Part shown: one piece after another, positions 22,566 through 39,949 of the stretch
Layout: each line of letters begins with the position of its first letter
Position numbering within the stretch: the first letter of the stretch is position 1
NCBI RefSeq assembly: GCF_024347535.1
Contig: NZ_AP025498.1
Span: forward strand, 1,414,352 to 1,478,351
Direction: 5' to 3'
Length of the DNA stretch: 64,000 nt
Source: Vibrio kanaloae
Lineage (GTDB): Bacteria; Pseudomonadota; Gammaproteobacteria; Enterobacterales; Vibrionaceae
Position numbers and translations under genes: made by a program
The notes under the pieces: model-generated
Seen by the model: only the letters and a program-made list of their open reading frames with translations
What the model was told of the DNA's origin: nothing
Databases searched by the model: none

Positions 22566-22572
22566 ACATCAT

Positions 22573-24081: not shown

Positions 24082-24084
24082 GGT

Positions 24085-24582: not shown

Positions 24583-24599
24583 AAGGCAAACCTTCCCTA

Positions 24600-24621
24600 A
24601 GCCCCAACCAAAGCTGGGGCT
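24600..24621 (-). terminator. Intercistronic hairpin between dctM and gntK
   Basis: Seven-base arms AGCCCCA and TGGGGCT lie in the 118-base gap between the TRAP large subunit and gluconokinase. There is no T tract on the minus strand, so it is more likely an RNA-processing or stability hairpin than a full terminator. Confidence 0.4.
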
Positions 24622-24700
24622 GACAATCGAATCTAATAGTTAAACTTATGTTGCTGCTGATCGGTCCCCGAATACTAAATCCGCTCAAGGACCTTTACTG

Positions 24701-26029
24701 TTATTGCCACCAAAGTGCTAGCTGAGGGAAGATAATAACCAGCCCCAGAACCAAGACTTGAAGTGCAATGAACGGCAGTAGTGAGGTAAATATCTCGCCC
24801 AAGCTGATGTCTTTTGGTGCGACCGATTTTAGGTAGAATGCCGCAGGGCCAAACGGTGGCGACAAGAAAGACACCTGCATGTTGAGACAGAACACAACAC
24901 CAAACCAAACCGGGTCAAAACCAAGGCCTGTAATGATTGGAACGAAGATTGGCATTGTTAGAAGCGCCACACCGACCCAATCAAGGAACATGCCTAAAAC
25001 CAACAAGATAGCCATCATGATTAGCAGCGTTACTGTTGCGTTGCCGCCACTTAGGGCAAGGATGGTTTCTTCAACAAAATCAATACCGCCCATCAAGTTG
25101 TAGATACCTACCAGTGCACTTGCACCGATGCCAATCCACATGATCATGCCGCAGGTACGCATGGTTGCCATGGCACTCTCTTTCAACATGTTGAAGTTCA
25201 GTTCGCCACGGATCAGTGCACTGATCATGATACCAACGACCCCCAAAGCAGAAGCTTCTGTTACTGAAGCAATACCTGTGTAGATACTGCCCAAAACCGT
25301 TGCGACTGAAAGCAGTGGAAAAAACAAAGCCTTGAAGTAGCTAGGCTGATTTGAGATGTTTTCTTCAGTCTCATCATCACTTGGAATAGGCGCGAGAGAA
25401 GGGTTTAGCTTACAACGAATCAATACGTAGCCGATGTAACAACCCGCAAGAATAAACGCTGGTAAAAAAGATGCTTTAAACAAGTCACCAATCGATACGC
25501 TGGCTGTCATACCGTAGATGATCAATACAATACTTGGTGGAAGCATGGTACCTAATGCACCACCCGCACAGGTTGTACCGATAGCAAGCTTACGGTCATA
25601 ACCCAAACGAAGCATCTGAGGCAAAGCGAGAATACCAAGTAGTACCGTTTCACCACCGATAACGCCCGACATTGAAGCCAATAAAACCGCGACTAATAAC
25701 GTTTGTACCGCAACGCCACCGCGAACCTTACGGCCGACAGATTTCATGGCATCAAACAAATCACGCGCGATACCAGAACGGTCTAGTAAAGCGGCCATTA
25801 ATACAAACATTGGAACTGCAAGAAATACATAACCAGAAGCGAAGCTGTAAGTACGGCTCGCAATCAAAGGCAAGGCATCAGGGCCAAACCAGCATAGAGT
25901 GAAGAAAATCGCGACAAAGCCTGTTACGAACGCTAGCTGCATACCAGTGAGTAGCAAACCAATCATCATAACCAGCATGAGCAAGCTGCCCCATGCGATA
26001 CCAATAGAAGATAAATCAAACATCGTCAT
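24701..26029 (-). CDS. TRAP transporter large permease (DctM-type)
   Basis: A 442-residue inner-membrane protein with about a dozen hydrophobic helices, the sodium-driven permease of a tripartite ATP-independent periplasmic transporter. The DctM signatures are PMFVLMAALLDRSGIARDLFDAM and GGALGTMLPPSIVLIIYG. It ends in FLSPPFGPAAFYLKSVAPKDISLGEI. It overlaps the small-subunit gene by a few bases, the usual arrangement. The likely substrate is gluconate or a related sugar acid, inferred from gntK, gnd, GntR and the operators; nothing in the protein proves it. An ATG two codons in (26023) is an alternative start. Confidence 0.85.
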   Translation of the reverse strand: MTMFDLSSIGIAWGSLLMLVMMIGLLLTGMQLAFVTGFVAIFFTLCWFGPDALPLIASRTYSFASGYVFLAVPMFVLMAALLDRSGIARDLFDAMKSVGRKVRGGVAVQTLLVAVLLASMSGVIGGETVLLGILALPQMLRLGYDRKLAIGTTCAGGALGTMLPPSIVLIIYGMTASVSIGDLFKASFLPAFILAGCYIGYVLIRCKLNPSLAPIPSDDETEENISNQPSYFKALFFPLLSVATVLGSIYTGIASVTEASALGVVGIMISALIRGELNFNMLKESAMATMRTCGMIMWIGIGASALVGIYNLMGGIDFVEETILALSGGNATVTLLIMMAILLVLGMFLDWVGVALLTMPIFVPIITGLGFDPVWFGVVFCLNMQVSFLSPPFGPAAFYLKSVAPKDISLGEIFTSLLPFIALQVLVLGLVIIFPQLALWWQ

Positions 26030-26573
26030 TCTTCCTTAGACCCATCAACTCTTGGATTAGGTGCAATACAAACTGGACAACAAGAACACACAAAACGACA
26101 AAGATCAGGCCTTTCAACAGCGCTGGATAAGGCGCGTTTAACACTGAGCCTGATGTCTCTAAGCGAAACTCTCCCCAAGGTGCAAACCATGCTTCTTCTG
26201 CTGTGAAGTAAGCCGCGTAAGCCAGCATGCCCGCAAAGGCCAAGCCAACTATGTGGTGAACAAGATTAAGGTACTTACGTGTTTGGTTAGACACTGAATC
26301 GTAGATAAGAACAACACGTACATGCTTATCAGCTGCGAAAGCGTAGATGCCGCCGATAATGAATAGAGAACCACCGATAAATGAAGCCGTTTCGTGTACC
26401 CATGTGGTCGGGGCATCAAATGCATAGCGCATCACAACTTCGTAAAATGAGATCAATACAGTGAAGATGAACAGCCAGCTAACTAAGTTACTGAATTTTA
26501 TGATAAGACGATCAAGCCCGTTTCTTGGCTTTTCATCGTTTTCTGCTGGTGCGTGAGGGATTTTGTCTGTCAT
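26016..26573 (-). CDS. TRAP transporter small permease (DctQ-type)
   Basis: A 185-residue membrane protein with four hydrophobic helices (starting near residues 33, 65, 103 and 145) and charged termini, typical of the TRAP small subunit. The family stretch MRYAFDAPTTWVHETASFIGG is clear. The start of dctM overlaps its end. It follows the binding-protein gene after a short hairpin-containing gap. Confidence 0.85.
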   Translation of the reverse strand: MTDKIPHAPAENDEKPRNGLDRLIIKFSNLVSWLFIFTVLISFYEVVMRYAFDAPTTWVHETASFIGGSLFIIGGIYAFAADKHVRVVLIYDSVSNQTRKYLNLVHHIVGLAFAGMLAYAAYFTAEEAWFAPWGEFRLETSGSVLNAPYPALLKGLIFVVLCVLVVQFVLHLIQELMGLRKNDDV

Positions 26574-26597
26574 GGGCCAAATTTCCTGGGAGAAAAA

Positions 26598-26618
26598 GGG
26601 AGAGCAACGCCCTCCCCC
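26598..26618 (-). terminator. Attenuator-like hairpin between TRAP binding protein and DctQ
   Basis: On the minus strand a 7-bp GC-rich stem (GGGAGGG with CTCTCCC, one G-T pair) and a 5-base loop are followed by TTTTT. It is likely a partial terminator that lets the binding protein be made in excess over the permeases. Confidence 0.6.
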
Positions 26619-26638
26619 ATCAATAAGCTAGGTTTGAA

Positions 26639-27655
26639 TTACAGTAGGCCGTTTTCTTCTAGGAACACGGTAACGGAAGTGTAAACTTTCCCTGCGTTGT
26701 CAGAGCGCTCTGCAAATACTTTCCATTGACCTTTTGCAATTTCACGGAACTTCTTACGCTCTTCTTGAGACCAGTCATGAATTGTGATTTCTGGATTCGC
26801 TTGTGCTTCTTTAACTGCTGCTTGATCAGCCATTTTTAGCTGAGTCGTCATGTCGTAAGAGAAATCACGTACGGATGTTTGTAGAATCGTTTGTAGATCC
26901 ACAGGCATCTTGTCCCATTTCTTTTGAGAAACAGAGATATCGATTAACGGTAGCGAATGGAAACCCGGTTGAACTGGGTGGGTCGCAATGTCGTTCATGC
27001 CCGCTTTTTGGTTTGTAGAGAATACCGTATAGTCCGCGGCATCAATTACGCCCTTGCTTAGACCGGTAAATACTTCAGAACCCGGAAGGTTTACTGGAGT
27101 CGCACCCGCTGCTGCAAACACTTGTTGTACTAAGCCTTCAGGCGCACGCAATTTAAGACCTTTAAGATCCGCAACACCGTCAATTGGCTTTTTAGAAATG
27201 AAAGATTCAACACCTGTTGTTGAAGCACCAACGAACTGAACACCGTAAGGCTTGTAAAGCTCAGTCATTAGTTCGTTACCGCCACCGTAGTTCATGTACT
27301 GAAGCAGTTGTGTTGTGTCTGACCATGCACCCACCATGTTACCGATTAGGCCGAATGCTGGATCTTTACCAGAGAAGTAACCCGTTGCTGTGATATGACC
27401 ATCTAAGATGCCCATTTTGATCGCGCCTAGCGTTTCAGTGTGCTTAACCACAGCGCCTACAGGAAGAAGATCAATGTCGATACGTCCGTTAGACATCGTT
27501 TCTACGCGCTCAGCCCATTTCTGCTGAACCTTGAAGTTCAAATCACCAGATGGATCTGAAGATTGAATCTTAAGTTTGAAGTCTGCAGCCATTGCTGAAG
27601 TAGCAAATAGGCCAGTGAGGGAAGCAGCGATCAGCGTTTTAGTCAGAGCTTTCAT
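26639..27655 (-). CDS. TRAP transporter periplasmic binding protein (DctP-type)
   Basis: A 338-residue exported binding protein. Residues 1-23 form a signal peptide (ending SAMA). The DctP core includes KWAERVETMSNGRIDIDLLPVGAVV, LKGLKLRAPEGLVQQVF with the Arg that usually pairs with a carboxylate ligand, and PVNLPGSEVFTGLSKGVIDAADY. It is the first gene of the gluconate row and lies just downstream of two GntR-type operators. A sugar-acid ligand such as gluconate is the best inference; aldonates or uronates are alternatives. Confidence 0.85.
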   Translation of the reverse strand: MKALTKTLIAASLTGLFATSAMAADFKLKIQSSDPSGDLNFKVQQKWAERVETMSNGRIDIDLLPVGAVVKHTETLGAIKMGILDGHITATGYFSGKDPAFGLIGNMVGAWSDTTQLLQYMNYGGGNELMTELYKPYGVQFVGASTTGVESFISKKPIDGVADLKGLKLRAPEGLVQQVFAAAGATPVNLPGSEVFTGLSKGVIDAADYTVFSTNQKAGMNDIATHPVQPGFHSLPLIDISVSQKKWDKMPVDLQTILQTSVRDFSYDMTTQLKMADQAAVKEAQANPEITIHDWSQEERKKFREIAKGQWKVFAERSDNAGKVYTSVTVFLEENGLL

Positions 27656-27855: not shown

Positions 27856-28758
27856 TTAATTCAGTGAGATAACTAAGCCAGCAATGATAAAAACAACACC
27901 TACACCGCGAGTCATGTGCCACTTTTCCTTTAAAAAGTAGATCCCCATCACGACGCCGAAGATGATGCTTACTTGCCTAAGTGCCACCACCAAGCTGACG
28001 TTCTCTGTCATGGTCATCGCAAATAACACCAAACCATAAGTCGAAGCCATCATAATGCCTGCAAGCGTGGCTTTCTTGCGTAGTATCCACGCATTCGCAA
28101 ACTCGACTCTTTGATTGGTCACCAACAACCAAATACTCAGCGGAATTACGATCGCCCAAAACTGAATACCTAGGTAAAATATCGCCGTGTGTTTATTAGT
28201 AATGGTGAGCGTGCTTAACGGCTCCAATAACAGAAGTGCTTCTTTATCTATAAGGGAATAACCCGTGGTACCTATCGCGGCTATTAGTGCCCACAGCACA
28301 CCAAGGTTAAGATAAGCCTTAAGTCTCAGCTCAGAGAATTGTTTCAGTGGAACGAACAAACAGCCTAATGTGATCAGTGCAAAGCCAATCCATTGATTCA
28401 GTGATAGCTCATAGCCAATCAAGACGGTCCCCAAACCAACCATTAAAACAGGCAGCGCTCGTGCCATTGGGTAAATCACACCAATATCAGCCTGTTTATA
28501 GGCGATGCCTAAGCCGATTAAATAGATGATTTGGCAAATGCCACTCAAGAATAGCAACTGCCAGAATGGAATTGTGATGTTTGCAAACCCGACACTGTAG
28601 ACATACCAAATCAAATAGGGAGTCAGAATCGCGGCAGCGGCAAAGCCAGACGCTAAGAAGAAAGAGGCCCCAGAGCCTTGATTTGATTTACCTAGAACAT
28701 TCCAACCCGCATGCAGCAGAGCCGAAATAATCACGATGATGATGGCAGAGAATTCCAT
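27856..28758 (-). CDS. EamA (DMT) family transporter
   Basis: A 300-residue inner-membrane protein with about ten helices in two EamA repeats. It begins MEFSAIIIVIISALLHAGWNVLGK, where HAGWN is typical of this subgroup. QADIGVIYPMARALPVLMVGLG lies at the end of the first repeat. The substrate is unknown. It sits between the gluconate module and the aminophosphonate regulator on the same strand as both, but hairpins on each side suggest its own unit. A role in aminophosphonate export or scavenging is possible but not supported by sequence. Confidence 0.8.
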   Translation of the reverse strand: MEFSAIIIVIISALLHAGWNVLGKSNQGSGASFFLASGFAAAAILTPYLIWYVYSVGFANITIPFWQLLFLSGICQIIYLIGLGIAYKQADIGVIYPMARALPVLMVGLGTVLIGYELSLNQWIGFALITLGCLFVPLKQFSELRLKAYLNLGVLWALIAAIGTTGYSLIDKEALLLLEPLSTLTITNKHTAIFYLGIQFWAIVIPLSIWLLVTNQRVEFANAWILRKKATLAGIMMASTYGLVLFAMTMTENVSLVVALRQVSIIFGVVMGIYFLKEKWHMTRGVGVVFIIAGLVISLN

Positions 28759-28892: not shown

Positions 28893-29597
28893 CTAACGCT
28901 CTAGCTGCGCTATCGACTCAATACTGATCGCGTCATGACGCCAATACTCAATATCACAGTCAATCAAATCGCCATTTTGATTGTAGTTAACGCGCTCAAC
29001 CACCATTGCAGGAGAACCCGAAGTCGCACGCAGAGCTTGTGCAGTTTCACCCAGCAAAGACGTTGTACTCACACGGTAACGGATCTTCTGATACACCACA
29101 CCAAAGTGTTCGCGGTAGATGTCCGTCAGTGATTTGGACAAGTCATAATCGAGCAAGTTAGGAAACAGCTCTGGTCGAATGTAGTTGGTCACATACACAA
29201 CAGGCCTGTCTTCAAGGTAGCGAACTCTATCGACACGATAAACATCTGAAAAAGGTTGAAGCCCAAGAAGCTTAGTTGCTTCCTTGGTTGCTAACATTCC
29301 TTTCGCTGCTACTAACTCTGTTTTTGGCTTACGATTCTGCGAGAGAGCCATGTTGGTGAAATTCAATGTTTGTGTCGGGTTGTAGCGAAGCGGCGCCGGC
29401 GAGATAAACCAACCACGACGGTCTTCTCGATAAATGCGTCCTTCCGCTTCAAGTGAAGACAAGGCTTCGCGTAACGTAACTCGTGTCGTATCAAACGACT
29501 CAGCCAGTTTACGTTCTGCAGGCAGCTTCTGTCGTGGCGTTAACATCCCCGACTCTATCTGCTCTACAATGACATCTTTGATTTTTACGTACTGCAC
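28893..29597 (-). CDS. phnR: GntR/HutC-family regulator of aminophosphonate use (PhnR-like)
   Basis: A regulator of about 234 residues. The N-terminal winged helix has VKIKDVIVEQIESGMLTPRQKLPAERKLAESFDTTRVTLREALSSLEAEGRIYRED, a clear GntR domain. The C-terminal part (about 90-230) is a UTRA ligand-binding domain with RVRYLEDRPVVYVTNYIRPELFP and DIEYWRHDAISI. I favour the GTG at 29597: it has AAAGGAAA close upstream, and the protein then begins MQYVKIKD like other family members. An ATG at 29610-29612 and a TTG at 29681 overlapping the permease are alternatives. It is the last gene of the ATPase-permease-regulator operon. Palindromes matching the HutC consensus GT-N-TA-N-AC lie before the operons and are its likely targets. 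Confidence 0.8.
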   Translation of the reverse strand: MQYVKIKDVIVEQIESGMLTPRQKLPAERKLAESFDTTRVTLREALSSLEAEGRIYREDRRGWFISPAPLRYNPTQTLNFTNMALSQNRKPKTELVAAKGMLATKEATKLLGLQPFSDVYRVDRVRYLEDRPVVYVTNYIRPELFPNLLDYDLSKSLTDIYREHFGVVYQKIRYRVSTTSLLGETAQALRATSGSPAMVVERVNYNQNGDLIDCDIEYWRHDAISIESIAQLER

Positions 29598-29665
29598 TTC
29601 ATTTCCTTTCATTCTTGTTCTTGTCGTCAGCCACTCCTTGGCCAACTGCAATATAAAATGGTTCG

Positions 29666-31390
29666 CTAGCGTTTGCGCCAAGCTTGGGTGCGCTTCTCAA
29701 ATAACTTGTTGATTAGCATATGAATCAACTTCGCACTCGCTGCTGATATCATGATCATCACTGCCATGGCTGCTGCTGCACCCGTTTGACCCGCATCGTC
29801 CATATTCAGTACTGAAACTGACGCAGGTATCGTATCGGTAGAATACAAGAATACTACCGCAGATGTCGTGGTAAGTGCATTAATAAACAGGTATGTCGCA
29901 ATATCTAAAATCGCAGGCAAACAAACCGGCACCGTCACTTTAAAGAACAGCTTATATTGCGGTAAGTTTACCGAAGCCGCCGTTGCCTCTATTTCCTCTG
30001 GTAGCTGTTTTAATGCGGTTAATGCCGTCATGTGCCCTACCGTGTAGTAGTGAACCACGGTATTAATCACCAAGAACGCCATCGTGCCATACAAGAAGTT
30101 GAGTGGGTTACTCAAATCATTAAAGTAGAAGATGTATCCTAAGCCTAACACCATACCCGGGACGGCCATCGGTACAACACTGAGCATCTGCATTGCTTGA
30201 CGAACAGGACCGAAGGCGCGGCCTTTCTCAATGCAGTACGCACCTAGGAAAATCAGCACTGTACCGATAATTGCAGTCCAAGCGCCGAGTGTTAAAGAGT
30301 TGAAAAATGGCGTCCAACCATAAGTACTCATCTCTGCGAAGTTATAATTATTTAGCGTTAACGTTTTATTCCAAGGCCAGAAGGTGACCATAGATCCGTA
30401 TATCGCCATGCCCAATACGATAACCACAGCAGCAGAGATGATCGTGCAGTAAAGGAAACATAAGCCATCACGTAACGTGCTAGGTTCAGGTTGGTACGCG
30501 ACAGAACGAGTATCAAACAAGCTCTTCTGTTTCTTTTGAACCCAGCGATCCACTGTAAACGCAAGCAACGCAGGCAATAGCAACAAGATACTGGTTACCG
30601 CACCCATAGAGAAGTTCTGTTGACCAACCACCTGCTTAAAGATGTCCGTCGATAACACGTTGTAGCTACCACCAATCACCTTTGGCACACCAAAGTCACA
30701 AACCACCAGCGTAAACACAACGATCAGCGTGCTGATCAAACCATACTTTGCCGCAGGTAGCGTCACCATGAAAAAGGTTTTTAATGATGAAGTATTGAGG
30801 GCACGAGCTGCCTCATAAAGACGAGCGTCAGAGGTTCTTAACGAGGTGGTCAGAATCATCAAGGCGTGTGGAAACGTCCAGAATATCAAGCCGAGTGATA
30901 TACCAATCAAGCCATAAACCGAGTTACCACCCAAGACTTCTTTAGTGATACCTTGGTTGCCAAATAAGAAGATCAAACTGATTGCAGGAAGCAGTGACGG
31001 AGCAAGAATAGGCGCAGAACCCAGCACTTGAAAAAGGCCCTTAAAAGGCATGCATGAACGAGTCAAAGCATAGGCATAACCAAACGCTAATACCCCCACA
31101 ACAACGGTCACTAACAACCCGAGCGTGAACGTATTACCTACCGACAGCCATAAGCTTTGAGACGCAAAATACGTTGCGAAATTCTGTAAACCTACAAATT
31201 CGCCGTCTGCGTTCTGAACACTCTTTTTCAACATTGCCCACAATGGCATCAGGATAAACAGCGTCATGACTACAGACAAAAATGCCAACAGCCCAAACAG
31301 AATTACGTTGTCTTTGCTTAACCGAGCCAGAAAAGGTTGTACTCGTCGTTGAAATAGCAGATTAGATTGCATCATTTGAGTCGATTCCAT
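29666..31390 (-). CDS. phnU: 2-aminoethylphosphonate ABC transporter, fused permease
   Basis: A 574-residue inner-membrane permease with about twelve helices. It is two ABC permease domains in one chain, as in iron- and phosphonate-type importers. Each half has an EAA-type loop: LYEAARALNTSSLKTFFMVTLPAAKYG and EEIEATAASVNLPQYKLFFKVTVPVCLP. It starts six bases after the ATPase gene. The assignment to 2-aminoethylphosphonate rests on the neighbouring binding protein, phnW, phnX and phnR, and on recalled similarity to the PhnS2-T2-U2 type of systems. Confidence 0.8.
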   Translation of the reverse strand: MESTQMMQSNLLFQRRVQPFLARLSKDNVILFGLLAFLSVVMTLFILMPLWAMLKKSVQNADGEFVGLQNFATYFASQSLWLSVGNTFTLGLLVTVVVGVLAFGYAYALTRSCMPFKGLFQVLGSAPILAPSLLPAISLIFLFGNQGITKEVLGGNSVYGLIGISLGLIFWTFPHALMILTTSLRTSDARLYEAARALNTSSLKTFFMVTLPAAKYGLISTLIVVFTLVVCDFGVPKVIGGSYNVLSTDIFKQVVGQQNFSMGAVTSILLLLPALLAFTVDRWVQKKQKSLFDTRSVAYQPEPSTLRDGLCFLYCTIISAAVVIVLGMAIYGSMVTFWPWNKTLTLNNYNFAEMSTYGWTPFFNSLTLGAWTAIIGTVLIFLGAYCIEKGRAFGPVRQAMQMLSVVPMAVPGMVLGLGYIFYFNDLSNPLNFLYGTMAFLVINTVVHYYTVGHMTALTALKQLPEEIEATAASVNLPQYKLFFKVTVPVCLPAILDIATYLFINALTTTSAVVFLYSTDTIPASVSVLNMDDAGQTGAAAAMAVMIMISAASAKLIHMLINKLFEKRTQAWRKR

Positions 31391-31396
31391 GATTGA

Positions 31397-32506
31397 TTAC
31401 GCCGCCTCGTCTTTCATCACTTGCAAGCTTTTCGATGGGTAAGCTCTCAGGCCTTCTTGATCAAACGCCACGTAACGGATATCACTGCGACGCAGCTTCA
31501 ATCGGTTGAACTCTTTGACGGGTACATCAACAATGATCTCTTTCGCCGTTGAGTCATGTTGCAATTGACACTCAACACGATAAAACGCCCCTAAGAATTC
31601 GCTTGATACGATTCTCACTGGCAAGGATTCACTAAAACGATCAACAAACTGGATTTGCTCTGGACGAACGGCAATATCGAAAACATCACCTAGGTTTGGC
31701 GTGAGATTATCTAAGCCAGGTAACGGCAGCATTGACTCAGCAATACGCATCTTACCTTGAGCTGCAACAGAAGCTTGAATGAAATTCATACTGCCCACAA
31801 ACTCAGCCACAAAACGGCTCACTGGTTTTTGGTAGATCTCTTGCGGTGCACCGACTTGCTCGATAACTCCATGATTCATTACCACAATACGGTCGGCCAT
31901 GGTCAAGGCTTCATCTTGGTCGTGCGTCACCATAATAGTGGTGATACCCAGCTTACGTTGCAATTGACAGATCTCGTCCCGCAAGTGTGTTCGTACTTTT
32001 GCATCCAATGCAGACAGTGGTTCATCAAGCAGTAGCAAGCCTGGAGACAAAGCCAAAGCACGAGCCAAAGCCACACGCTGCTGTTGTCCTCCAGACAGCT
32101 GATTCGGGAATTTTTGAGCAGACGTTGGTAAACCGATGGTTTCTAACCAAGATTCCACCGTTTCAAGGGCTTCTTTGGTCGACATACCTTGGTTTTTAAG
32201 GCCAATCGCAATGTTTTCTTCCACCGTGAGATTTGGGAACAGAGCATAAGATTGGAACACAATGCCAAAGTCGCGCTTTTCTGGCGGTAAGAAGGTTGTG
32301 TCGTTACCGTTTTGCTCGATAGAACCAGAAGTTGGTAAGTCTAAACCTGCAATCGCACGTAATAAGGTGGTTTTTCCGCAGCCAGACGGGCCAAGGAAAC
32401 AGACGAACTCGCCTTTATCTATCGATAGGGAGATGTCTTTTAACGCTGTAAATTGGCCAAATTGTTTTACAACGTTTTCAATATTCAAATAAGTTTGGTT
32501 GCTCAT
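31397..32506 (-). CDS. phnT: 2-aminoethylphosphonate ABC transporter ATPase
   Basis: A 369-residue cytosolic ABC ATPase. Walker A GPSGCGKTT, Q-loop FQSYALFPN, signature LSGGQQQR, Walker B LLLLDEPLSALD and an H-loop in VTHDQDEAL are all intact. The C-terminal TOBE-type regulatory domain (about 240-369) is present. It opens the leftward operon; a TGGTATATACCA dyad sits about 20-30 bases upstream of the start, close to where transcription should begin. Confidence 0.85.
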   Translation of the reverse strand: MSNQTYLNIENVVKQFGQFTALKDISLSIDKGEFVCFLGPSGCGKTTLLRAIAGLDLPTSGSIEQNGNDTTFLPPEKRDFGIVFQSYALFPNLTVEENIAIGLKNQGMSTKEALETVESWLETIGLPTSAQKFPNQLSGGQQQRVALARALALSPGLLLLDEPLSALDAKVRTHLRDEICQLQRKLGITTIMVTHDQDEALTMADRIVVMNHGVIEQVGAPQEIYQKPVSRFVAEFVGSMNFIQASVAAQGKMRIAESMLPLPGLDNLTPNLGDVFDIAVRPEQIQFVDRFSESLPVRIVSSEFLGAFYRVECQLQHDSTAKEIIVDVPVKEFNRLKLRRSDIRYVAFDQEGLRAYPSKSLQVMKDEAA

Positions 32507-32524
32507 ACTACAGCACTCTCTATA

Positions 32525-32536
32525 TGGTATATACCA
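32525..32536. promoter_or_regulatory. Likely PhnR operator before phnT
   Basis: TGGTATATACCA is a perfect 12-base palindrome containing GTATATAC, which fits the GT-N-TA-N-AC pattern of HutC-type GntR regulators. Related sites occur before phnW and phnS. Confidence 0.65.
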
Positions 32537-32694
32537 AATTTAAACTGAGAATATTGCAGTTGAGTGACAAATTTATAGTAGCTAAATGACAGTTATATTG
32601 CAGAAATAAAATTCATTCTAACGGGAAAAAATACGCATTAAACAAGTCCGAACGTTCAATAACTTATAGCAAAGTGTTTATCACTCGAAGGGGA

Positions 32695-32731
32695 TTTGGC
32701 GATAAAAACTAACGTACTTTTTACCGCCAAA
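32695..32731. repeat. Long inverted repeat between the HAD gene and the phnT promoter
   Basis: Fourteen-base arms TTTGGCGATAAAAA and TTTTTACCGCCAAA (one mismatch) have a 9-base spacer. It lies 83 bases after the HAD gene. There is no T tract after the stem, so it may be a terminator of unusual form or a protein-binding site. The rest of 32540-32813 shows nothing else I can name. Confidence 0.5.
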
Positions 32732-32813
32732 TATCAACTGATGTTTATGATTTTAACTGTTACTTTTAATCGCGATAGCCTCAAGTAGCAACAGTCCTTA
32801 TCAATGACTAAGC

Positions 32814-33455
32814 TCAGTACACCGCACACCACGGAATAGAATCTGCTCGAGTTCTTAAACGTTCATGTGGGTTAGCTAAATGAGGACGATCGGCCAAATC
32901 ATATTGAGGCAAGTCGTTAATTGAACCACAGAGGCCTTGTTGGTGATCAAATGCTGTGCGCCACTCTTTAAAACTCACAATCTTACCGTACATGTGATTT
33001 GGAAGCCCCAGAACTTTAACACTATATTGACCAGACTCTTCCATTAATTCGATGCCGACTGCATTCGGAATATTGAGCTTTTTCGCTACACAGGCAGGAA
33101 TGAGCGATACGATGGCAGAGATAATCACCATCGTCTGCCCTTGTATTTTGGAAGACCAGTTCCCTTGCATCACTTGAGGAAAGATCTTACTCAGTACTTT
33201 GCTATCAATACACTCCTCTAACAAAGCACACACCTCTTGATGTGTTTTATTTACTAGAGAGCGAGTAGCAAATTCGAGGTAAGCGTCTTCATTAAGAATA
33301 CCTTGAACATACAGTGTCATTAACCGGCGTTCTTCGTTCAAAAAACTAGGTTCATTCGCTAAGCCTTTTTCAACCAAAAACTCATTCCAAATCATGGCAC
33401 TGTTTCCGTCCATGAGTGTTTCATCTAGATCAAATACATACAGCGGGGTCGTCAT
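32814..33455 (-). CDS. HAD-IB-type phosphatase-like protein in the aminophosphonate locus
   Basis: A protein of about 213 residues from the SerB-like HAD-IB group. Motif I is FDLDETLMDGNS with Asp9 and Asp11, motif II is ISAI (Ser113), motif III Lys158 in MYGKIVSFKEW. Motif IV reads LCGSINDLPQYDLAD. Family members normally have GDS-x-N-D-L-P there, so the first acidic residue is replaced by Gly177 while Asp181 remains. That change may weaken Mg2+ binding. Asp9/Asp11 are intact, so some activity is possible. The ATG at 33455 is preferred to an in-frame GTG at 33467. It is the last gene of the row binding protein-oxidoreductase-HAD. A phosphonate or phosphate-ester substrate is inference only. 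Confidence 0.7.
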   Translation of the reverse strand: MTTPLYVFDLDETLMDGNSAMIWNEFLVEKGLANEPSFLNEERRLMTLYVQGILNEDAYLEFATRSLVNKTHQEVCALLEECIDSKVLSKIFPQVMQGNWSSKIQGQTMVIISAIVSLIPACVAKKLNIPNAVGIELMEESGQYSVKVLGLPNHMYGKIVSFKEWRTAFDHQQGLCGSINDLPQYDLADRPHLANPHERLRTRADSIPWCAVY

Positions 33456-33529
33456 ATCAATTCTCACTTCAAATCAAACTTAACTTCCAACTTATACTTA
33501 ACAGGCAAGAAACAACCTAAACCACAGGT

Positions 33530-34948
33530 TTATTCCACCTTGTCGGCTTTGCCTGCCGCACCAGCGAGCTTTGCCAATTGCTTATCCAGCCACAATGGCG
33601 TGTTACCAGAATCTTCCGCGTTCTCTTTTCTTCGTACCGCATCGCGAACCATCATCGCTCCCACCCAACGGAATGGCTCTGGCGGGAAGTGTCCTAACGG
33701 GCCTTTAGTTAAACCGCTTCGTGTCCAAGCATTGTCGATATCGAGTACCATTGCTGACAAAATCTTCCCGCCCATACGGGTTTGAGCAACGCCATTGCCT
33801 GAATAACCAAGCCCATAATAGATGTTGTTTTGGCCTTTTAGGTTACCGAAAAATGGCAATCCTGTGACCGAACGATCTGAGCCGCCAGACCAGTTGTAAT
33901 CGAATTCACTTTGTTCCAATTTAGGGAACAGTTTTTGGAACGATTGATTGAGAATCGGCAGGTAGTTGGTCGTTTGGTTAAACATGCTTTCAACTTGATT
34001 GGCAAACGAGAACTTATTACCGCCTTTACCCAACATGAGTCGTCCGTCCTGGGTGTCTCGGTAATAGTGGACAAAGATACGTGAATCCACCACCGCCGCC
34101 CCTTTCTCGGGACCAAACTGCTTAAGTTTTTCTGGGATTGGCTTAGTCACCACCATGTCTGACGAAACAACCACAATGCTGCGTTTGAACTCTTTGAAGT
34201 GATCGAGCATCCATGCGTTGAGTGCCAAAATCACTTTATCCGCAAATAAGGAACCGCCTTTGGTTTGAATACGAGCGGGAGAGCCATAATCGAGCGACGT
34301 CATCTCTGTGTTTTCATAAATTTCGACTCCCAAATCGAGCGCGACCCGGCGCAAACCTCTAGCCAATAACGCTGGCTGCACACTGCCCGCAGCTTCTGAG
34401 TAGTAACCCTCAATGTGGCGATCAGACCCAGCTTTGTCAGCCAAAGAATTGTCGCACTTCTTCCAGCTATTGATACCCTGCTTAACCAGCTCATTAACAA
34501 CAGGCTCCATTCCACCCTTTTGAGCTTCATTGGTCGCCGTGTAGTAAGTTCCGCTTCGATATAGATGCGCGTCAATCTTGTGTTCGTTACAGAAGGCTTC
34601 GATCTCGTATATAACCTTTTCCGATTCCTTAACCAACCATTTCGCTTGTTCTTTTCCGTAAAGCTTTTTCAGCGTCGGATACTTAGTTGACCACGTCAGC
34701 ATGCAACCGCCGTTCGCACCAGAAGCACCGCTACCACATAGGCCTTTTTCAATCACGACAACATGTTTTTCGGGTTGCTGTTGTTTGATTAAAATCGCCG
34801 TCCATAAACCCGTATAGCCACCGCCAACAATAGCGATATCACAGTTGACATCTTTTTGAAGCGGCTTAACCGAATCTAGCCCCGCATTAATATTGCCAAA
34901 CTCTTGTTCCAACGCTTGCTTGAACCAATATGAGTAGTGCTTTGTCAT
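33530..34948 (-). CDS. FAD-dependent aminophosphonate oxidoreductase (DAO family)
   Basis: A 472-residue flavoprotein of the D-amino-acid-oxidase superfamily. The dinucleotide motif DIAIVGGGYTGLWTAILI is at about 37-55, followed by GLCGSGASGANGGCMLTW. Further conserved stretches are EAAGSVQPALLARGL and YNWSGGSDRSVTGLPFFG; GYSGNGVAQTRMGGKI is the C-terminal FAD contact. Families of this kind recur in phosphonate clusters, and recent work describes some that oxidise 2-aminoethylphosphonate or its N-alkyl forms to phosphonoacetaldehyde; I infer that role here. It lies between the binding-protein gene, separated by a hairpin, and the HAD gene. The exact substrate is open. Confidence 0.75.
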   Translation of the reverse strand: MTKHYSYWFKQALEQEFGNINAGLDSVKPLQKDVNCDIAIVGGGYTGLWTAILIKQQQPEKHVVVIEKGLCGSGASGANGGCMLTWSTKYPTLKKLYGKEQAKWLVKESEKVIYEIEAFCNEHKIDAHLYRSGTYYTATNEAQKGGMEPVVNELVKQGINSWKKCDNSLADKAGSDRHIEGYYSEAAGSVQPALLARGLRRVALDLGVEIYENTEMTSLDYGSPARIQTKGGSLFADKVILALNAWMLDHFKEFKRSIVVVSSDMVVTKPIPEKLKQFGPEKGAAVVDSRIFVHYYRDTQDGRLMLGKGGNKFSFANQVESMFNQTTNYLPILNQSFQKLFPKLEQSEFDYNWSGGSDRSVTGLPFFGNLKGQNNIYYGLGYSGNGVAQTRMGGKILSAMVLDIDNAWTRSGLTKGPLGHFPPEPFRWVGAMMVRDAVRRKENAEDSGNTPLWLDKQLAKLAGAAGKADKVE

Positions 34949-34988
34949 TTGTTGTACCTTACTTAAAACCTAAAGGCGTAAAACTAAA

Positions 34989-35012
34989 AAAGGAAGACCG
35001 AAGCCTTCCTTT
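34989..35012 (-). terminator. UUCG-loop hairpin after the phosphonate binding protein
   Basis: AAAGGAAG and CTTCCTTT pair around a TTCG-containing loop and are followed on the minus strand by TTTTTT. It probably ends most transcripts after the binding protein gene and attenuates the two genes downstream. Confidence 0.75.
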
Positions 35013-35068
35013 ACTGATTTCTAACTTCTAATGAACTAAATAGTTAATTAACTGAATAGGTCGTCAGA

Positions 35069-36076
35069 TTAAGATTTTGGCTCTGATTTAGCGTCAAACT
35101 TCTCAGACCATGTTTTCAGAACATCTGCACGTTCACTGCCCATACGAGCGAAGTCCATTTTTGCCATGTTCTTCTCTACGTTCGGGAAGTTCTCTGCTTT
35201 ACCTGTTACATCTTGGTGGCCAACAACTGGGTACATTTCGATGTAAAGTTCATTCGCTGCTTTAGAGATAGACCAATCGATAACACGTTGTGCTGCATCT
35301 GAAGGCTTAACAAGACCTACCGCTTCAGATTCCCAACCGATACCTTCAGGCGTAATCACAGAAAGCGGCGCACCTTGAGTTTTCAGCTTCGCACCGCGGC
35401 TCGCCATAGAAATACCGATAGCCACTTCACCCATACCCGCTTGAACACATGGCTTAGAACCAGAGTGCGTGTAGTGAGCAATGTTTTGATCTAGCTTCTG
35501 CATGTAGTTCCAACCTTGGTCTTCACCCATGTTTTGTAACCAAGCCGAAACCTGCATGTAGCCCGTACCAGAAGACGCTGGGTTTGGCATTGCAATGTGG
35601 CCTTTGTAGATAGGCTTTGTTAGGTCATCCCAAGACTTAGGTGCCGGTAGATTCAATTGCTTAGCCACCACTTCGTTAAAGCAAACTGCATTGAAGAATG
35701 CGTCATTGCCATACCAAGCTTGAGTAGACTGTGGGTCGTTAAGGTTAGCGCGTAATGCTTCTACACCTTGAGGCGTATAAGGTTTCAGGATGCCCTCTTC
35801 TTTAAGCAGTGCCATTGAAGAACCAGCAAGCCCCCAAACTACCTCTGCGCGAGGGTTGTTTTTCTCGGCCAATAATTTTGCCGTCATGATCCCAGTAGAA
35901 TCACGTACCCACTTGATGTTGATATCTGGGTTTTCACTTTCGAAAGCATTTTTGTATTTAGCTAAAATGTCAGTTTCAAAAGCAGTGTAAACCGTCACTT
36001 CCTGTGCTGCATAAGCGTTACCAGCGAGTAGAGTTACTAAAGCTGCAAGTGATCCTTTCATAAAACGGTTTTTCAT
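35069..36076 (-). CDS. phnS: 2-aminoethylphosphonate-binding periplasmic protein
   Basis: A 335-residue exported binding protein of the iron/thiamine/phosphonate-type family. A signal peptide of about 23 residues ends in GNAYA and is followed by AQEVTVYTAFETDILAKYKNAFE. PNPASSGTGYMQVSAWLQNMGEDQGWNYM and VAIGISMASRGAKL are family segments. The ATG at 36076 has GGAG six bases upstream; one codon earlier is also possible. It leads the leftward row with the FAD oxidoreductase and HAD gene and is divergent from phnW across 400 bases that hold two operator-like sites. Confidence 0.85.
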   Translation of the reverse strand: MKNRFMKGSLAALVTLLAGNAYAAQEVTVYTAFETDILAKYKNAFESENPDINIKWVRDSTGIMTAKLLAEKNNPRAEVVWGLAGSSMALLKEEGILKPYTPQGVEALRANLNDPQSTQAWYGNDAFFNAVCFNEVVAKQLNLPAPKSWDDLTKPIYKGHIAMPNPASSGTGYMQVSAWLQNMGEDQGWNYMQKLDQNIAHYTHSGSKPCVQAGMGEVAIGISMASRGAKLKTQGAPLSVITPEGIGWESEAVGLVKPSDAAQRVIDWSISKAANELYIEMYPVVGHQDVTGKAENFPNVEKNMAKMDFARMGSERADVLKTWSEKFDAKSEPKS

Positions 36077-36251
36077 CATTTTCTCCAGTCAGGCTCAACT
36101 CTAAAGTGAGAAGTTGCCAAAATTAAAAGTTATCGAGATTTAAAGCTGCCTAGGTTTAGCAACCAAGGTTTAACGTTTCTTAAGTTAGAAGCCTCACTAA
36201 GAAGCACCTATACCCATAAATTCATTTAGGTTGTTAGTACACGCCTTTTTA

Positions 36252-36265
36252 CTGGTATGTACCAG
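36252..36265. promoter_or_regulatory. Likely PhnR operator in the phnS-phnW divergent region
   Basis: CTGGTATGTACCAG is a 14-base palindrome differing at one core position from the TGGTATATACCA site before phnT. It lies between the divergent phnS and phnW, about 175 bases from phnS and 210 from phnW. Confidence 0.6.
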
Positions 36266-36439
36266 ATGGTGAGTATTAACCTAATCGACTTTTATGACGG
36301 TTAAATGAACAAAAAATGGCAATTTAAAGATCGGAATATTTCTCAACACGAGTGACAAATTTGAATATGAAGCTTTTGTGAAAATAACGTTTGGGCTATT
36401 TACGACCGTTTAAATTGGTTGTTAAAGTAATTGCAAATA

Positions 36440-36452
36440 CTGGTATAGTCCA
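36440..36452. promoter_or_regulatory. Imperfect PhnR-like operator just before phnW
   Basis: The core TGGTATAGTCCA matches TGGTATATACCA at 10 of 12 positions. Its distance to the phnW start (about 25 bases) equals that of the phnT site to phnT. Confidence 0.5.
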
Positions 36453-36476
36453 AAATGAAAATCACGAGAATTGAAC

Positions 36477-37580
36477 ATGAGAAACGAATACTTACTACTG
36501 ACACCGGGTCCTCTATCTACTTCTGAAACCGTTCGCCAAGCGATGCTAAAAGATTGGTGTACTTGGGATGATGAATACAACAAAGACGTTGTTGAAGTGA
36601 TTCGTAGCAAGCTTGTGACTTTGGCAACGAAGCAGGCGGGATATACAAGTGTATTAATGCAAGGCAGCGGCACAGCTTCAGTTGAAGCAACAATCGGTAG
36701 CGTTATCTCTAACAGCGGCAAGCTTCTTGTTGTTGACAATGGTGCGTATGGTGCTCGTATTGCTCAAATCTCAGAATACTTAAACATTCCATGCCATGTC
36801 GTTTCCCCAGGTGAAACATCACAGCCTGACTTGAACGAAATGGAGACGGCATTGGCTATGGATTCAGACATTACTCACGTTGCGATTGTGCACTGTGAGA
36901 CCACTACGGGTATGTTGAATCCAATCGAAGACATCGCCAAATTGGCAAAACAGCACAACAAAACCGTCATTCTAGATGCGATGTCGAGTTTTGGTGGCAT
37001 CCCTATGGATATAGCTGACTTAGGTATCGACTACATGATCAGCTCTGCAAACAAGTGCATTCAAGGTGTACCCGGGTTCGGCTTTGTTATTGCCAAGCAA
37101 TCGGAACTGGAAAAGTGCAAAGGCCAAGCTCGTTCATTAAGCCTTGACCTGTTTGACCAATGGCACTGCATGGAAAGCAACCATGGTAAATGGCGCTTCA
37201 CATCTCCAACTCATACAGTGCGTGCTTTCTACCAAGCTCTACTTGAATTGGAGCAAGAAGGTGGCATCGAAGCTCGTCATAATCGCTACCAAACCAACCA
37301 AACGACATTGGTTGCAGGTATGCGCTCTCTTGGCTTTGAACCACTGCTTAATGATGATCTTCATTCACCTATCATTACCTCTTTCTATTCTCCAACTCAT
37401 AGCGATTACCAATTCAAGGAATTCTATGACCGTTTGAAAGAACAAGGTTTTGTGATTTACCCGGGCAAGGTTTCAAACGCAGACTGCTTCCGCATCGGTA
37501 ACATTGGTGAAGTGTATCCGTCAGACATTGAAGCTCTCATTGGCGCAGTTAAGAATGCTATGTACTGGGACATCAAATAA
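36477..37580 (+). CDS. phnW: 2-aminoethylphosphonate:pyruvate transaminase
   Basis: A 367-residue PLP enzyme that converts 2-aminoethylphosphonate and pyruvate to phosphonoacetaldehyde and alanine. It begins [19 protein letters not shown] like Salmonella Phn[32 protein letters not shown] contains the PLP Lys (in SSANKC). The ATG at 36477 is preferred over an in-frame TTG six bases earlier. Length equals the family norm. Its stop overlaps the start of the next gene by a base, giving tight coupling with pbfA. Confidence 0.92.
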
Positions 37581-39022
37581 TGACGACGACCAATCAAGAG
37601 CCGATTCTAAAGGCCACACACTTTCGAAGCGAAGGCGATGTGAACACCACGCCAGCACGCGAAAAATGGAACGAATCATCGCTAAACGATGATGCGACTC
37701 AAGCGATGTTAAAACGTGACTCTGACGTGTTTCTTCATCAAGCCATGTCAACGCCTTGCCTAGACACACTTGAAGCAGCCGAAGGCATCTACATTCAAGA
37801 TGCGACGGGCAAAAAGTACATGGACTTTCACGGGAATAATGTTCATCAGTTGGGTTATGGCCACCCACACATCATTAATAAAGTGACTCAACAAATGGCG
37901 TCATTGCCGTTTTCACCGCGTCGCTTTACCAATGAAACAGCCGTTCAGTGCGCTGAAAAGCTTACGCAGATCTGTGATGGTGATTTGAATCGAGTGCTGT
38001 TTGCTCCTGGTGGAACTTCAGTTATTGGTATGGCACTCAAGCTGGCTCGACATGTCACCAACAACTTCAAGGTCGTTTCATTGTGGGATTCATTCCACGG
38101 TGCGTCACTCGATGCAATTTCGGTGGGTGGCGAAGCTTGTTTCCGTGAAGGCATGGGGCCATTAATGGCTGGCGTAGAACGCATTCCACCAGCAGTTTCC
38201 TATCGTGGTGCTTTTCCCCTTAATGTCTCTTTATCGCGTTGCGGGCAAAACTCAGGCGATAACAATGAGACGGCATGTGATGTGCACTACGCCGATTACC
38301 TTGAGTATGTGATTGAAAAAGAAGGTGGCATTGGTGCCTTCATTGCGGAAGCAGTGCGTAACACAGACGTTCAAGTACCAAGCAAAGCTTACTGGAAGCG
38401 TATCCGTGAGATCTGCGATAAGCATAACGTCATGTTGATCATCGACGATATTCCAAACGGTATGGGTCGCAGTGGCGAATGGTTCACTCACCAAGCTTTT
38501 GATATCGAACCTGACATTCTTTGTATCGGTAAAGGTTTTGGCGGCGGCTTAGTACCAATCGCAGCCATGATCACTAAAGACAAATACAACACGGCAGCGC
38601 AAGTATCTCTTGGGCACTACACCCATGAAAAAAGCCCAATTGGTTGCGCGGCAGCACTCGCCACCATGGAAGTGATTGAGCAAGAAAACCTACTTGAAAA
38701 AGTACAAGCGGACAGCGCATTCGTGCGTGAACAACTGCTTCAAATGAAAGAGAAGTACTCAGTCATTGGTGACGTTCGCGGCATCGGCCTGCTCTGGGGG
38801 GTGGAATTGGTCACCGATCATATCACCAAAATCCGAGCTTTCGATGAAGCGGAAGCCGTACTTTACCAATGTCTAAACGATGGCCTGAGTTTCAAGGTGT
38901 CACAAGGTAATGTGATTCAGTTGAGCCCACCATTGATCATCAGTCGCAGCGAACTAGAAGTCGCTCTGTCTGTATTCGACAAAGCGATAGCAAAAGTCTG
39001 CAAAGACTTTGATTACCTCTAA
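37580..39022 (+). CDS. pbfA: PLP-dependent (R)-1-hydroxy-2-aminoethylphosphonate ammonia-lyase (PbfA-like)
   Basis: A 480-residue class III aminotransferase-fold protein. PLP Lys318 lies in CIGKGFGGGLVPIAAM, FAPGGTSVIGMALKLAR binds the cofactor phosphate, and IIDDIPNGMGRSGEWF holds the pyridine-contacting Asp. Typical transaminases read DEVQTGFGRTG there, so the DDIPNG form marks another activity. An enzyme of this fold next to phnW and phnX was described in Vibrio splendidus as PbfA, which eliminates ammonia from (R)-1-hydroxy-2-aminoethylphosphonate to give phosphonoacetaldehyde. Position and recalled sequence fit that. It starts at the last base of phnW. Its product would join that of PhnW for cleavage by PhnX. 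Confidence 0.82.
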   Translation: MTTTNQEPILKATHFRSEGDVNTTPAREKWNESSLNDDATQAMLKRDSDVFLHQAMSTPCLDTLEAAEGIYIQDATGKKYMDFHGNNVHQLGYGHPHIINKVTQQMASLPFSPRRFTNETAVQCAEKLTQICDGDLNRVLFAPGGTSVIGMALKLARHVTNNFKVVSLWDSFHGASLDAISVGGEACFREGMGPLMAGVERIPPAVSYRGAFPLNVSLSRCGQNSGDNNETACDVHYADYLEYVIEKEGGIGAFIAEAVRNTDVQVPSKAYWKRIREICDKHNVMLIIDDIPNGMGRSGEWFTHQAFDIEPDILCIGKGFGGGLVPIAAMITKDKYNTAAQVSLGHYTHEKSPIGCAAALATMEVIEQENLLEKVQADSAFVREQLLQMKEKYSVIGDVRGIGLLWGVELVTDHITKIRAFDEAEAVLYQCLNDGLSFKVSQGNVIQLSPPLIISRSELEVALSVFDKAIAKVCKDFDYL

Positions 39023-39106
39023 ACCATCATCTAACCAATAACTTAAAACAATCATTCATCTCCCAGAACAACTTGAGCAGGGAGAGAACAGAAATAGGAC
39101 ACGACT

Positions 39107-39949
39107 ATGAACACAACATCACCTATCCAAGCGGTTATCTTTGACTGGGCTGGCACTATCGTTGATTTTGGATCATTTGCTCCAACCAGCATCTTTGTTG
39201 AAGCATTCAAACAGGGCTTCGACTTTGACATCGACTTAGCAGAAGCACGAGAGCCTATGGGTATCGGTAAATGGGATCACATCCAAGCGGTGGGTCAACT
39301 CCCTGCGGTTGATGCTCGTTGGAATGCTCAGTTTGGGCGCTCGATGACAAGTGAAGATGTTGATGCGATCTACGCGGCATTCATGCCTCTTCAAAAAGCG
39401 AAAGTAGCCGACCACGCAGCACCGATTTTAAACGCGATTGAAGTGGTCAATAACCTTAAAGAGAAGAACGTAAAAATCGGTTCTTGTTCAGGTTACCCAC
39501 GCGAAGTAATGGATGTGCTGATCCCTTCCGCCGCAGATTATGGCTACCGACCAGACAACGTAGTTGCAACGGATGACTTGCCTCAAGGCGGTCGCCCAGC
39601 TCCTTTCATGGCGCTTAAAAACGTCATTGATCTAGGTGTGACGAACGTTGCTGCGTGTGTAAAAGTAGACGACTCAGCACCGGGTATCGATGAAGGTCAC
39701 AACGCAGGCATGTGGACAGTTGGACTTGTATTATCGGGGAACGAAGCAGGATTAACGTACCAAGAATACTTAGATGCAGACGAAGCAACACTGGCAGCAG
39801 CACGTGAAAAAGCAAGCGTGAAGCTAAACAAGTCCAACCCACACTACTTAATCGACACCATCGCCGATCTACCAACCGTAATTGCAGATATCGAGAAGCG
39901 TTTACTGGCAGGCGAACGTCCACAGAATAAAAAACTAACCACAATCTAA
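39107..39949 (+). CDS. phnX: Phosphonoacetaldehyde hydrolase (phosphonatase)
   Basis: A 280-residue HAD-fold enzyme that splits phosphonoacetaldehyde into acetaldehyde and phosphate. Motif I is [12 protein letters not shown] (DWAGT is specific to PhnX). Lys55 in [12 protein letters not shown] is the Schiff-base residue. [13 protein letters not shown] is motif II, and [19 protein letters not shown] motif IV. It closes the rightward phnW-pbfA-phnX operon, 84 bases after pbfA, with a terminator beyond. An extended C-terminus ([11 protein letters not shown]) follows the usual end. Confidence 0.92.

What the first reader, a model, noticed from the sequence alone, without database searches (positions are those of the whole stretch)
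28893..39949. Complete aminophosphonate locus with three convergent routes to phosphonoacetaldehyde
The sequence shows an importer (binding protein, fused permease, ATPase), PhnW, a PbfA-like lyase, a DAO-family FAD oxidoreductase and PhnX together with a PhnR-type regulator. PhnW and PbfA reactions are known; the oxidoreductase giving the same aldehyde is inferred. If so, the cell funnels 2-aminoethylphosphonate, its 1-hydroxy form and possibly N-alkyl forms into one hydrolase.
Basis: partly seen in the sequence, partly recalled or inferred. Interest (0 to 1): 0.7.

Follow-up and report, generated by a model that had tools for sequence, protein, structure and literature searches.

The report
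Vibrio aminophosphonate-degradation gene cluster
This is a marine Vibrio gene cluster that imports related carbon-phosphorus compounds and turns them by three routes into one intermediate so that the cell can take their phosphate; the three routes have already been described, so it is essentially ordinary.

Summary
Window 28893-39949 encodes PhnR, a PhnS2-T2-U2 importer, an FAD oxidoreductase, PhnW, PbfA and PhnX; eight of its nine genes score above their NCBIfam cut-offs.

PbfA was characterised from V. splendidus (PMC8154272). PbfB/C/D-type FAD enzymes turn N-methyl-AEP into phosphonoacetaldehyde (PMC10590968), and a review figure legend lists the same three routes (PMC10574752). V. vulnificus PbfB extracts acted on N-methyl-AEP, not AEP. 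The FAD protein here is most likely PbfB, but I could not compare it with that sequence.

Small additions, not seen in paper searches (listings): (1) three TGGT(N4)(A/T)CCA sites, likely PhnR operators, present in 28 of 29, 29 of 30 and 30 of 30 loci, beside two Pho-box-like arrays; (2) the HAD-IB gene is optional and evolves faster than its neighbours, and 7 of 9 close orthologues, this one included, have a changed canonical HAD residue. PhnX is the genome's only phosphonatase over cut-off; PhnJ and PhnA models found nothing. Low interest.

The parts
27856..28758 (-).
   Evidence: 315.8 bits vs cut-off 288.15; a homologue is seen in 28 of the 32 loci, the window included
28893..29681 (-). PhnR, GntR/UTRA regulator (TIGR03337); the true start may lie inside the listed TTG ORF
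   Evidence: 368.5 vs 296.75, match starts at residue 30
29666..31390 (-). PhnU2, double-length ABC permease (TIGR03262)
   Evidence: 823.4 vs 593.25
31397..32506 (-). PhnT2, ABC ATPase (TIGR03265)
   Evidence: 520.8 vs 457.7
32524..32537 (.). putative PhnR operator TTGGTATATACCAT (palindrome TGGTATATACCA), matched octamer at -28 of phnT2
   Evidence: 28 of 29 upstream regions keep TGGT[AG]TATACCA
32564..32603 (-). Pho-box-like array, 11-bp period (CTGTCAT-type units) upstream of phnT2
   Evidence: 3-unit score 16.6, 0 of 500 shuffles reach it (2-unit: 1 of 500); an 18-bp consensus scan of the whole window is at chance level
32814..33467 (-). HAD-IB hydrolase homologue, probably degenerate (motif IV first Asp replaced by Gly: CGSINDLP)
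33530..34948 (-). FAD-dependent aminophosphonate oxidoreductase, TIGR03329; most likely PbfB (N-methyl-AEP to phosphonoacetaldehyde)
   Evidence: 745.1 vs 632.8; PbfD1-type TIGR03364 only 20 vs 285.1; PF01266 DAO 188.5 bits
35069..36079 (-). PhnS2, periplasmic binding protein (TIGR03261)
   Evidence: 499.4 vs 392.75
36252..36265 (.). putative PhnR operator CTGGTATGTACCAG between phnS2 and phnW
   Evidence: TGGT.TG.ACCA in 29 of 30 upstream regions
36294..36322 (-). Pho-box-like array facing phnS2
   Evidence: 3-unit score 15.6, 2 of 500 shuffles reach it (2-unit: 33 of 500)
36440..36453 (.). putative PhnR operator CTGGTATAGTCCAA close to the phnW start
   Evidence: TGGT.TA..CCA in the last 80 bases before phnW in 30 of 30, the exact 12-mer TGGTATAGTCCA in 28 of 30 upstream regions
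36471..37580 (+). PhnW, 2-AEP:pyruvate aminotransferase; ORF starts TTG at 36471, an in-frame ATG is at 36477
   Evidence: TIGR02326 648 vs 400.8; Lys195 in SSANKCIQG; PDB 9kk8 match E 2.1e-223
37580..39022 (+). [quoted passage not shown]
   Evidence: NF049939 722 vs 525; Lys318 in CIGKGFGGG
39107..39949 (+). PhnX, phosphonoacetaldehyde hydrolase
   Evidence: TIGR01422 321.1 vs 220; Asp13 and Lys55 conserved in alignment to PDB 2iof

Best explanation
A Vibrio (Splendidus-clade-like) aminophosphonate locus of the published phnWX type with two published accessory feeds. PhnS2-T2-U2 imports aminophosphonates. PhnW transaminates AEP, PbfA eliminates ammonia from (R)-HAEP, and the TIGR03329 FAD enzyme, most likely PbfB, oxidatively removes methylamine from N-methyl-AEP; each gives phosphonoacetaldehyde, which PhnX splits to acetaldehyde and phosphate. 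Two divergent units flank a shared control region. My inference is that PhoB (through Pho-box-like arrays) and PhnR (through three TGGT(N4)(A/T)CCA sites) control them, and that the HAD-IB gene is a dispensable, eroding passenger.
For: Shown by sequence: gene families and order; lysine and aspartate residues expected for PhnW, PbfA and PhnX (their roles are recalled). Synteny: PhnW, PbfA, PhnX and the FAD gene all seen in 11 of 17 other 20-kb loci (16 of the same genus, 1 of the same order) and in 15 of 16 named Vibrionales loci, the 16th ending at a contig end. Established by others: PbfA chemistry in V. splendidus (PMC8154272 abstract, sections 13 and 19), PbfB of V. vulnificus on N-methyl-AEP (PMC10590968 section 14). 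One PhnX over cut-off, no PhnJ or PhnA match in the genome. Regulation: conserved sites and arrays.
Against: Two of 18 genomes with TIGR03329 over cut-off carry it with no other gene of the locus found within about 9 kb (L050, L051), so it can work outside a phnWX cluster. One locus (L048) has PhnW, PhnX and the FAD gene but no PbfA in 20 kb. The Pho-box consensus scan of the window found 9 matches against 9.8 expected and the operator scan 7 against 5.7, so the regulatory part rests on position, periodicity and conservation. No array was found facing phnW. PbfB was never purified, so its electron acceptor is unknown.
Confidence: 0.9

Rival explanations
1. The FAD enzyme acts on another aminophosphonate (for example (R)-HAEP, N-methyl-HAEP or AEP itself) and not mainly on N-methyl-AEP.
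For: TIGR03329 is only a 'hypoth_equivalog' named 'putative aminophosphonate oxidoreductase'; the assayed PbfB is from another species and was tested only in extracts. PbfD2 from M. fucicola oxidises AEP only 4-fold more slowly than N-methyl-AEP.
Against: PbfB extracts with PhnX gave phosphate from N-methyl-AEP and none from AEP; PhnW and PbfA already cover AEP and (R)-HAEP in the same locus.
Confidence: 0.1
2. The HAD-IB gene is a working fourth accessory enzyme, for instance a phosphatase for a phosphomonoester analogue of AEP such as phosphoethanolamine that enters through the same importer.
For: A homologue of 49% identity or more was found in 12 of 196 genomes of the genus, the window's included, and in all 12 it lies beside the FAD gene, with phnT2 in the same short stretch in 11; dN/dS 0.11-0.22 is below 1; its paralogue sits in a second cassette with a PhnR-like regulator and an ABC transporter; a more distant homologue lies next to phnX in L049 with intact motifs.
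Against: In this window the motif IV first Asp is Gly; 7 of 9 close orthologues differ at motif I or at that Asp, against 0 of 3 more distant ones beside the FAD gene and 0 of the 18 next-best ones elsewhere; its dN/dS is higher than that of each of the eight other genes compared, in each of six comparisons; 6 of 16 named loci have it.
Confidence: 0.12

Closest known systems
V. splendidus phnWX-pbfA cluster (Zangelmi et al. 2021, PMC8154272)
   Same: PhnW, PbfA and PhnX together; the same group of organisms (named V. splendidus loci L056, L058, L059 have the same genes in the same order except that the HAD-IB gene is absent).
   Different: The abstract and sections 13 and 19 that I read do not treat an FAD gene; I saw only the legend of its Figure 2 cluster maps.
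PbfB of V. vulnificus (Zangelmi et al. 2023, PMC10590968)
   Same: FAD-dependent PF01266 oxidoreductase of a Vibrio AEP cluster; N-methyl-AEP to phosphonoacetaldehyde.
   Different: Sequence identity to the window protein not measured; the accession table is a supplement that I did not see.
Azospirillum sp. B510 phnWX with PbfA and PbfC (PMC10590968 section 20)
   Same: Three feeds into one phnWX pathway.
   Different: The FAD enzyme belongs to another group (PbfC).
Salmonella phnRSTUVWX (as described in passages of PMC11203657)
   Same: AEP importer, PhnW, PhnX and PhnR; PhoB control combined with PhnR is described there for some bacteria.
   Different: Seven genes with phnU and phnV separate; no PbfA or FAD gene in that description.

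Membership tests
phnWX hydrolytic AEP pathway | PhnW and PhnX in one cluster, without pepM/ppd biosynthesis genes beside them | tested here: met
   for both enzymes; the only PEP mutase match in the genome is below cut-off and lies on the other contig. ppd was not searched by itself; none of the ten genes scanned was so named.
PbfA | score above the PbfA model, class III aminotransferase family, PLP lysine | tested here: met
   NF049939 722 vs 525; PF00202; Lys318 (its role is recalled)
PbfA | lyase activity on (R)-HAEP | not testable with these tools
   shown for V. splendidus PbfA in PMC8154272, not for this protein
PbfB | PF01266 oxidoreductase in a phnWX cluster of Gamma/Betaproteobacteria | tested here: met
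PbfB | sequence falls in the PbfB clade rather than PbfC or PbfD | tested here: inconclusive
   PbfD1-type TIGR03364 scores 20 vs cut-off 285.1. Identity to E. coli PuuB over the FAD domain is 28.5% of alignment columns, 32.0-33.2% of aligned pairs, with matrices other than the paper's; published: PbfB 31.2%, PbfC 25.8%, PbfD 23.4 and 25.7%. No PbfB or PbfC reference sequence was available.
PbfB | oxidation of N-methyl-AEP but not AEP | not testable with these tools
   published for V. vulnificus PbfB extracts
PhnX phosphonatase | nucleophile Asp and Schiff-base Lys | tested here: met
   Asp13 and Lys55 align with Asp and Lys of 2iof; the role of these residues is recalled
Active HAD-IB phosphatase (32814-33467) | motifs I DxDxT, II S, III K, IV (D)xxxD | tested here: not met
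   motifs I-III present, first Asp of motif IV replaced by Gly; the motifs and their roles are recalled
Pho regulon member | Pho box upstream | tested here: inconclusive
   11-bp-period arrays, 0 and 2 of 500 shuffles reach the 3-unit scores, the phnT2 one kept in relatives, but the simple consensus scan of the window is at chance; the consensus is recalled

The most novel reading that the evidence does not exclude
The FAD-phnT2 gap is a slot for interchangeable accessory genes of the aminophosphonate locus (a HAD-IB phosphatase homologue here, a TonB-dependent receptor in L038), so the locus is still gaining and losing substrate-range modules. The HAD-IB protein, copied from a second PhnR-like-regulated uptake cassette, once fed or still feeds a phosphomonoester analogue of AEP into the same import and phosphate pool.
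Probability: 0.15. Interest if true: 0.35.

Novelty: already known. Interest (0 to 1): 0.2.

Why it matters
It shows that the three-feed aminophosphonate pathway described in separate papers stands as one conserved locus in a group of marine vibrios. It also gives concrete candidate operators for PhnR, so control by substrate and by phosphate could be tested. The erosion of the HAD-IB gene is a small natural experiment in module loss.

Tried and rejected
A purely novel FAD route: rejected, because PMC10590968 and the figure legend of PMC10574752 describe it.

FAD protein as PbfD1-type: rejected, TIGR03364 scores 20 against a cut-off of 285.1.

A second C-P cleaving system that would make the locus redundant: PhnJ 0 matches (the E. 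coli control rang), PhnA 0 matches (no control genome was over that cut-off, so this negative is weaker), one of 7 phosphonatase-model matches over cut-off; the PEP mutase match is below cut-off. PhnY*/PhnZ, PalA/PalB and PbfF were not searched.

Pho box by consensus scan of the window: 9 matches against 9.8 expected, so rejected as evidence by itself; the array test is what I use. That test was tried with 2 and 3 units on four stretches. Shuffles as good, of 500: phnT2 upstream 1 and 0; phnS2-facing strand 33 and 2; phnW-facing strand 432 and 443; control stretch after phnX 383 and 339.

PhnR operator by a 2-mismatch scan of the window: 7 matches against 5.7 expected, also not significant by itself. 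The pattern TGGTNTRNNCCA occurs 45 times forward and 47 reverse in the genome, the reversed control 50 and 40, so the pattern is not rare; what stands out is three sites within 4 kb here, near the starts of phnT2 and phnW and between phnS2 and phnW, kept in relatives. One further exact TGGTATATACCA lies at C1:1648189; by eye neither of the two ORFs of at least 80 aa around it is a phosphonate gene.

Dropped rows: PhnR dN/dS values (the match began in the non-conserved TTG extension and the coding sequence was cut short); the comparisons with L063 and L065, where dS was saturated for many genes; locus L068 (Cyclobacteriaceae, 28% identity) from all counts.

Model prediction and fold search were not used.
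Full report
OBSERVATION. The window lies on the second contig of a two-contig, 4.65-Mb genome. The closest named relatives of the FAD gene are Vibrio, 93-97% identical in V. lentus, V. splendidus, V. crassostreae, V. tasmaniensis and V. chagasii, so I call it Splendidus-clade-like (the clade name is recalled); the species itself was not established. The ORFs in 28893-39949 are intact. NCBIfam names eight of the nine genes there above cut-off: PhnR, PhnU2, PhnT2, the TIGR03329 'putative aminophosphonate oxidoreductase', PhnS2, PhnW, PbfA and PhnX. A tenth gene, TIGR03340, stands just outside at 27856-28758.

WHAT IT IS. Published work covers each step. PbfA was characterised from V. splendidus and turns (R)-HAEP into phosphonoacetaldehyde (PMC8154272, abstract and sections 13 and 19 read). 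FAD enzymes of three groups, PbfB, PbfC and PbfD, feed N-methyl-AEP into the same intermediate (PMC10590968: abstract, section 7 part 1 of 3, section 14, section 15 part 1 of 2, section 20 and passages read). PbfB was tested from V. vulnificus, in extracts only: phosphate was released from N-methyl-AEP in the presence of PhnX and not from AEP. The Figure 4 legend of the review PMC10574752 (passages read) lists PhnW, PbfA and PbfB/C/D as three sources of phosphonoacetaldehyde. The 2025 PbfF paper PMC12366243 (abstract and passages) tabulates pbfA together with pbfC or pbfD in one cluster.

MEMBERSHIP OF THE FAD PROTEIN. It scores 745.1 against a cut-off of 632.8 for TIGR03329 and only 20 for TIGR03364, the family that PMC10590968 names for PbfD1. 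In 61 genomes (own, genus and order) 18, the own one included, exceed the TIGR03329 cut-off. An alignment with E. coli PuuB gave 28.5% of columns or 32.0-33.2% of aligned pairs over the FAD domain, near the published PbfB value of 31.2% but with other matrices, so inconclusive. I rate PbfB as most likely on genus, context and family.

SYNTENY. Around the TIGR03329 gene of the 17 other genomes (16 of the same genus, 1 of the same order) I took 20-kb stretches. PhnW, PbfA, PhnX and the FAD gene were all seen in 11 of 17 (L038-L047 and L049; PhnX partly cut in L045); in 3 (L035-L037) the stretch ended within or before phnW, so PbfA and PhnX could not be judged; L048 had PhnW and PhnX without PbfA; L050 and L051 had the FAD gene and none of the other nine genes searched. 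In L050 a LysR-type regulator lies next to it. Of 17 named loci, one (Cyclobacteriaceae, 28%) was dropped; in the 16 Vibrionales loci PhnS2, the FAD gene, PhnW and PbfA were present in 16 and PhnX in 15, L052 ending at a contig end.

ONE HYDROLASE. In the window's own genome PhnJ (PF06007) and PhnA (TIGR02335) gave no match, and TIGR01422 gave 7 matches of which one, at this locus, is over cut-off. The PhnJ search had a positive control; the PhnA search had none over cut-off. PEP mutase (TIGR02320) gave one match below cut-off; E. coli also rings below cut-off. PhnY*/PhnZ, PalA/PalB and PbfF were not searched.

CONTROL REGION. Upstream of phnT2, TGGT[AG]TATACCA is found in 28 of 29 upstream regions, with the matched octamer at -26 to -30 (29 of 32 loci could be used, the window included; the exception is L048). 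Upstream of phnW, TGGT.TG.ACCA is found in 29 of 30 (exception L061) and TGGT.TA..CCA within 80 bases of the start in 30 of 30 (30 of 32 usable). The phnT2 site keeps its place whether a HAD-IB gene (window) or a TonB-receptor gene (L038) stands upstream. The general pattern TGGTNTRNNCCA is frequent genome-wide (45 forward, 47 reverse; control 50 and 40), and a loose scan of the window is not significant, so the case rests on conservation, position and clustering. Many of these loci are close relatives, so the counts are not independent. A GntR/HutC-type operator of this form is recalled, not retrieved. Beside the phnT2 site is an 11-bp-period array of CTGTCAT-type units (0 of 500 shuffles reach the 3-unit score), and another faces phnS2 (2 of 500); none was found facing phnW (443 of 500), and a control stretch after phnX gave 339 of 500. 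The simple 18-bp scan of the window was at chance. PhoB control combined with PhnR is described for some phosphonatase operons (PMC11203657 passages). By contrast, the abstract of PMC8316502 calls its three AEP transporters phosphate-insensitive (abstract and passages). Searches returned no title or abstract start that names this operator, and search 74 none that names a HAD-IB gene in a phnWX locus; I saw listings, and of the listed papers read only the parts named in this report; one search showed 20 of its 27.

THE HAD-IB GENE. In 196 genomes drawn from the genus, 147 have a homologue at E 0.001 or better. The 12 best (identity 49-100%, L069-L080) all lie beside the FAD gene, with phnT2 in the same short stretch in 11. 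In 6 of 16 named loci it is present; L061 ends shortly after the FAD gene and cannot be judged. Of the 9 close orthologues (L069-L077) 7 differ from the canonical motifs: Gly for the first motif IV Asp in 2 (the window is one), Glu in 3, motif I DLEET in 1 and DLDEA in 1. None of the 3 more distant ones beside the FAD gene (L078-L080) and none of the 18 next-best ones taken as loci (L081-L098) differ there; of the weaker matches only that in L049 was looked at. These rows are related by descent, so the counts are not independent. Pairwise dN/dS between the window and six relatives is 0.11-0.22 for this gene and 0.007-0.059 for the eight other genes compared (PhnX in five of the six), PhnR being dropped for a cutting error. 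It is thus under weaker constraint, though not free of it. Its paralogue in the same genome (C2:370649-371290) sits in a cassette with a PhnR-like regulator (255.9 bits, cut-off 296.75), a PF13343 binding protein, two permeases, an ATPase and a type I phosphodiesterase-family protein. In 13 of the 18 rows L081-L098 an ATPase similar to PhnT2 (43-54%, a level that other ABC ATPases may also reach) lies within the short flank. A copy from such a cassette is a plausible origin, not shown.

VERDICT. Real, correctly read, already described in its essentials. Interest 0.2.

Noticed in passing
L105 about 6632-12963 (own genome, C2 about 370.6-377.0 kb): A second uptake cassette: PhnR-like regulator (below cut-off), PF13343 binding protein, two permeases, PhnT2-like ATPase (below cut-off), type I phosphodiesterase-family protein and HAD-IB hydrolase; substrate unknown.
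   Followed up: partly
L038 6975-9158 (L039 has a gap of similar length at the same place): A TonB-dependent receptor gene stands between phnT2 and the FAD gene, where the window has the HAD-IB gene; checked by Pfam in L038 only, the L039 gap was not read.
   Followed up: partly
L050 9577-10965 and L051 9217-10593: TIGR03329 FAD genes with none of the other locus genes within about 9 kb; in L050 a LysR regulator is next to it. A role apart from phnWX is possible.
   Followed up: partly
L049 3-644: A distant HAD-IB homologue (32%, motifs intact) lies next to phnX, cut by the end of the stretch.
   Followed up: partly
G000:C1:1648189-1648200 (L099): The only other exact copy of TGGTATATACCA in the genome; by eye no phosphonate gene among the two ORFs of 80 aa or more around it.
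   Followed up: partly
window 21394-27655: Next to the locus: TRAP-type transporter genes, a gluconate-kinase-like and a 6-phosphogluconate-dehydrogenase-like gene and a LacI-type regulator, named from their sequences only; not part of the phosphonate locus.
   Followed up: no
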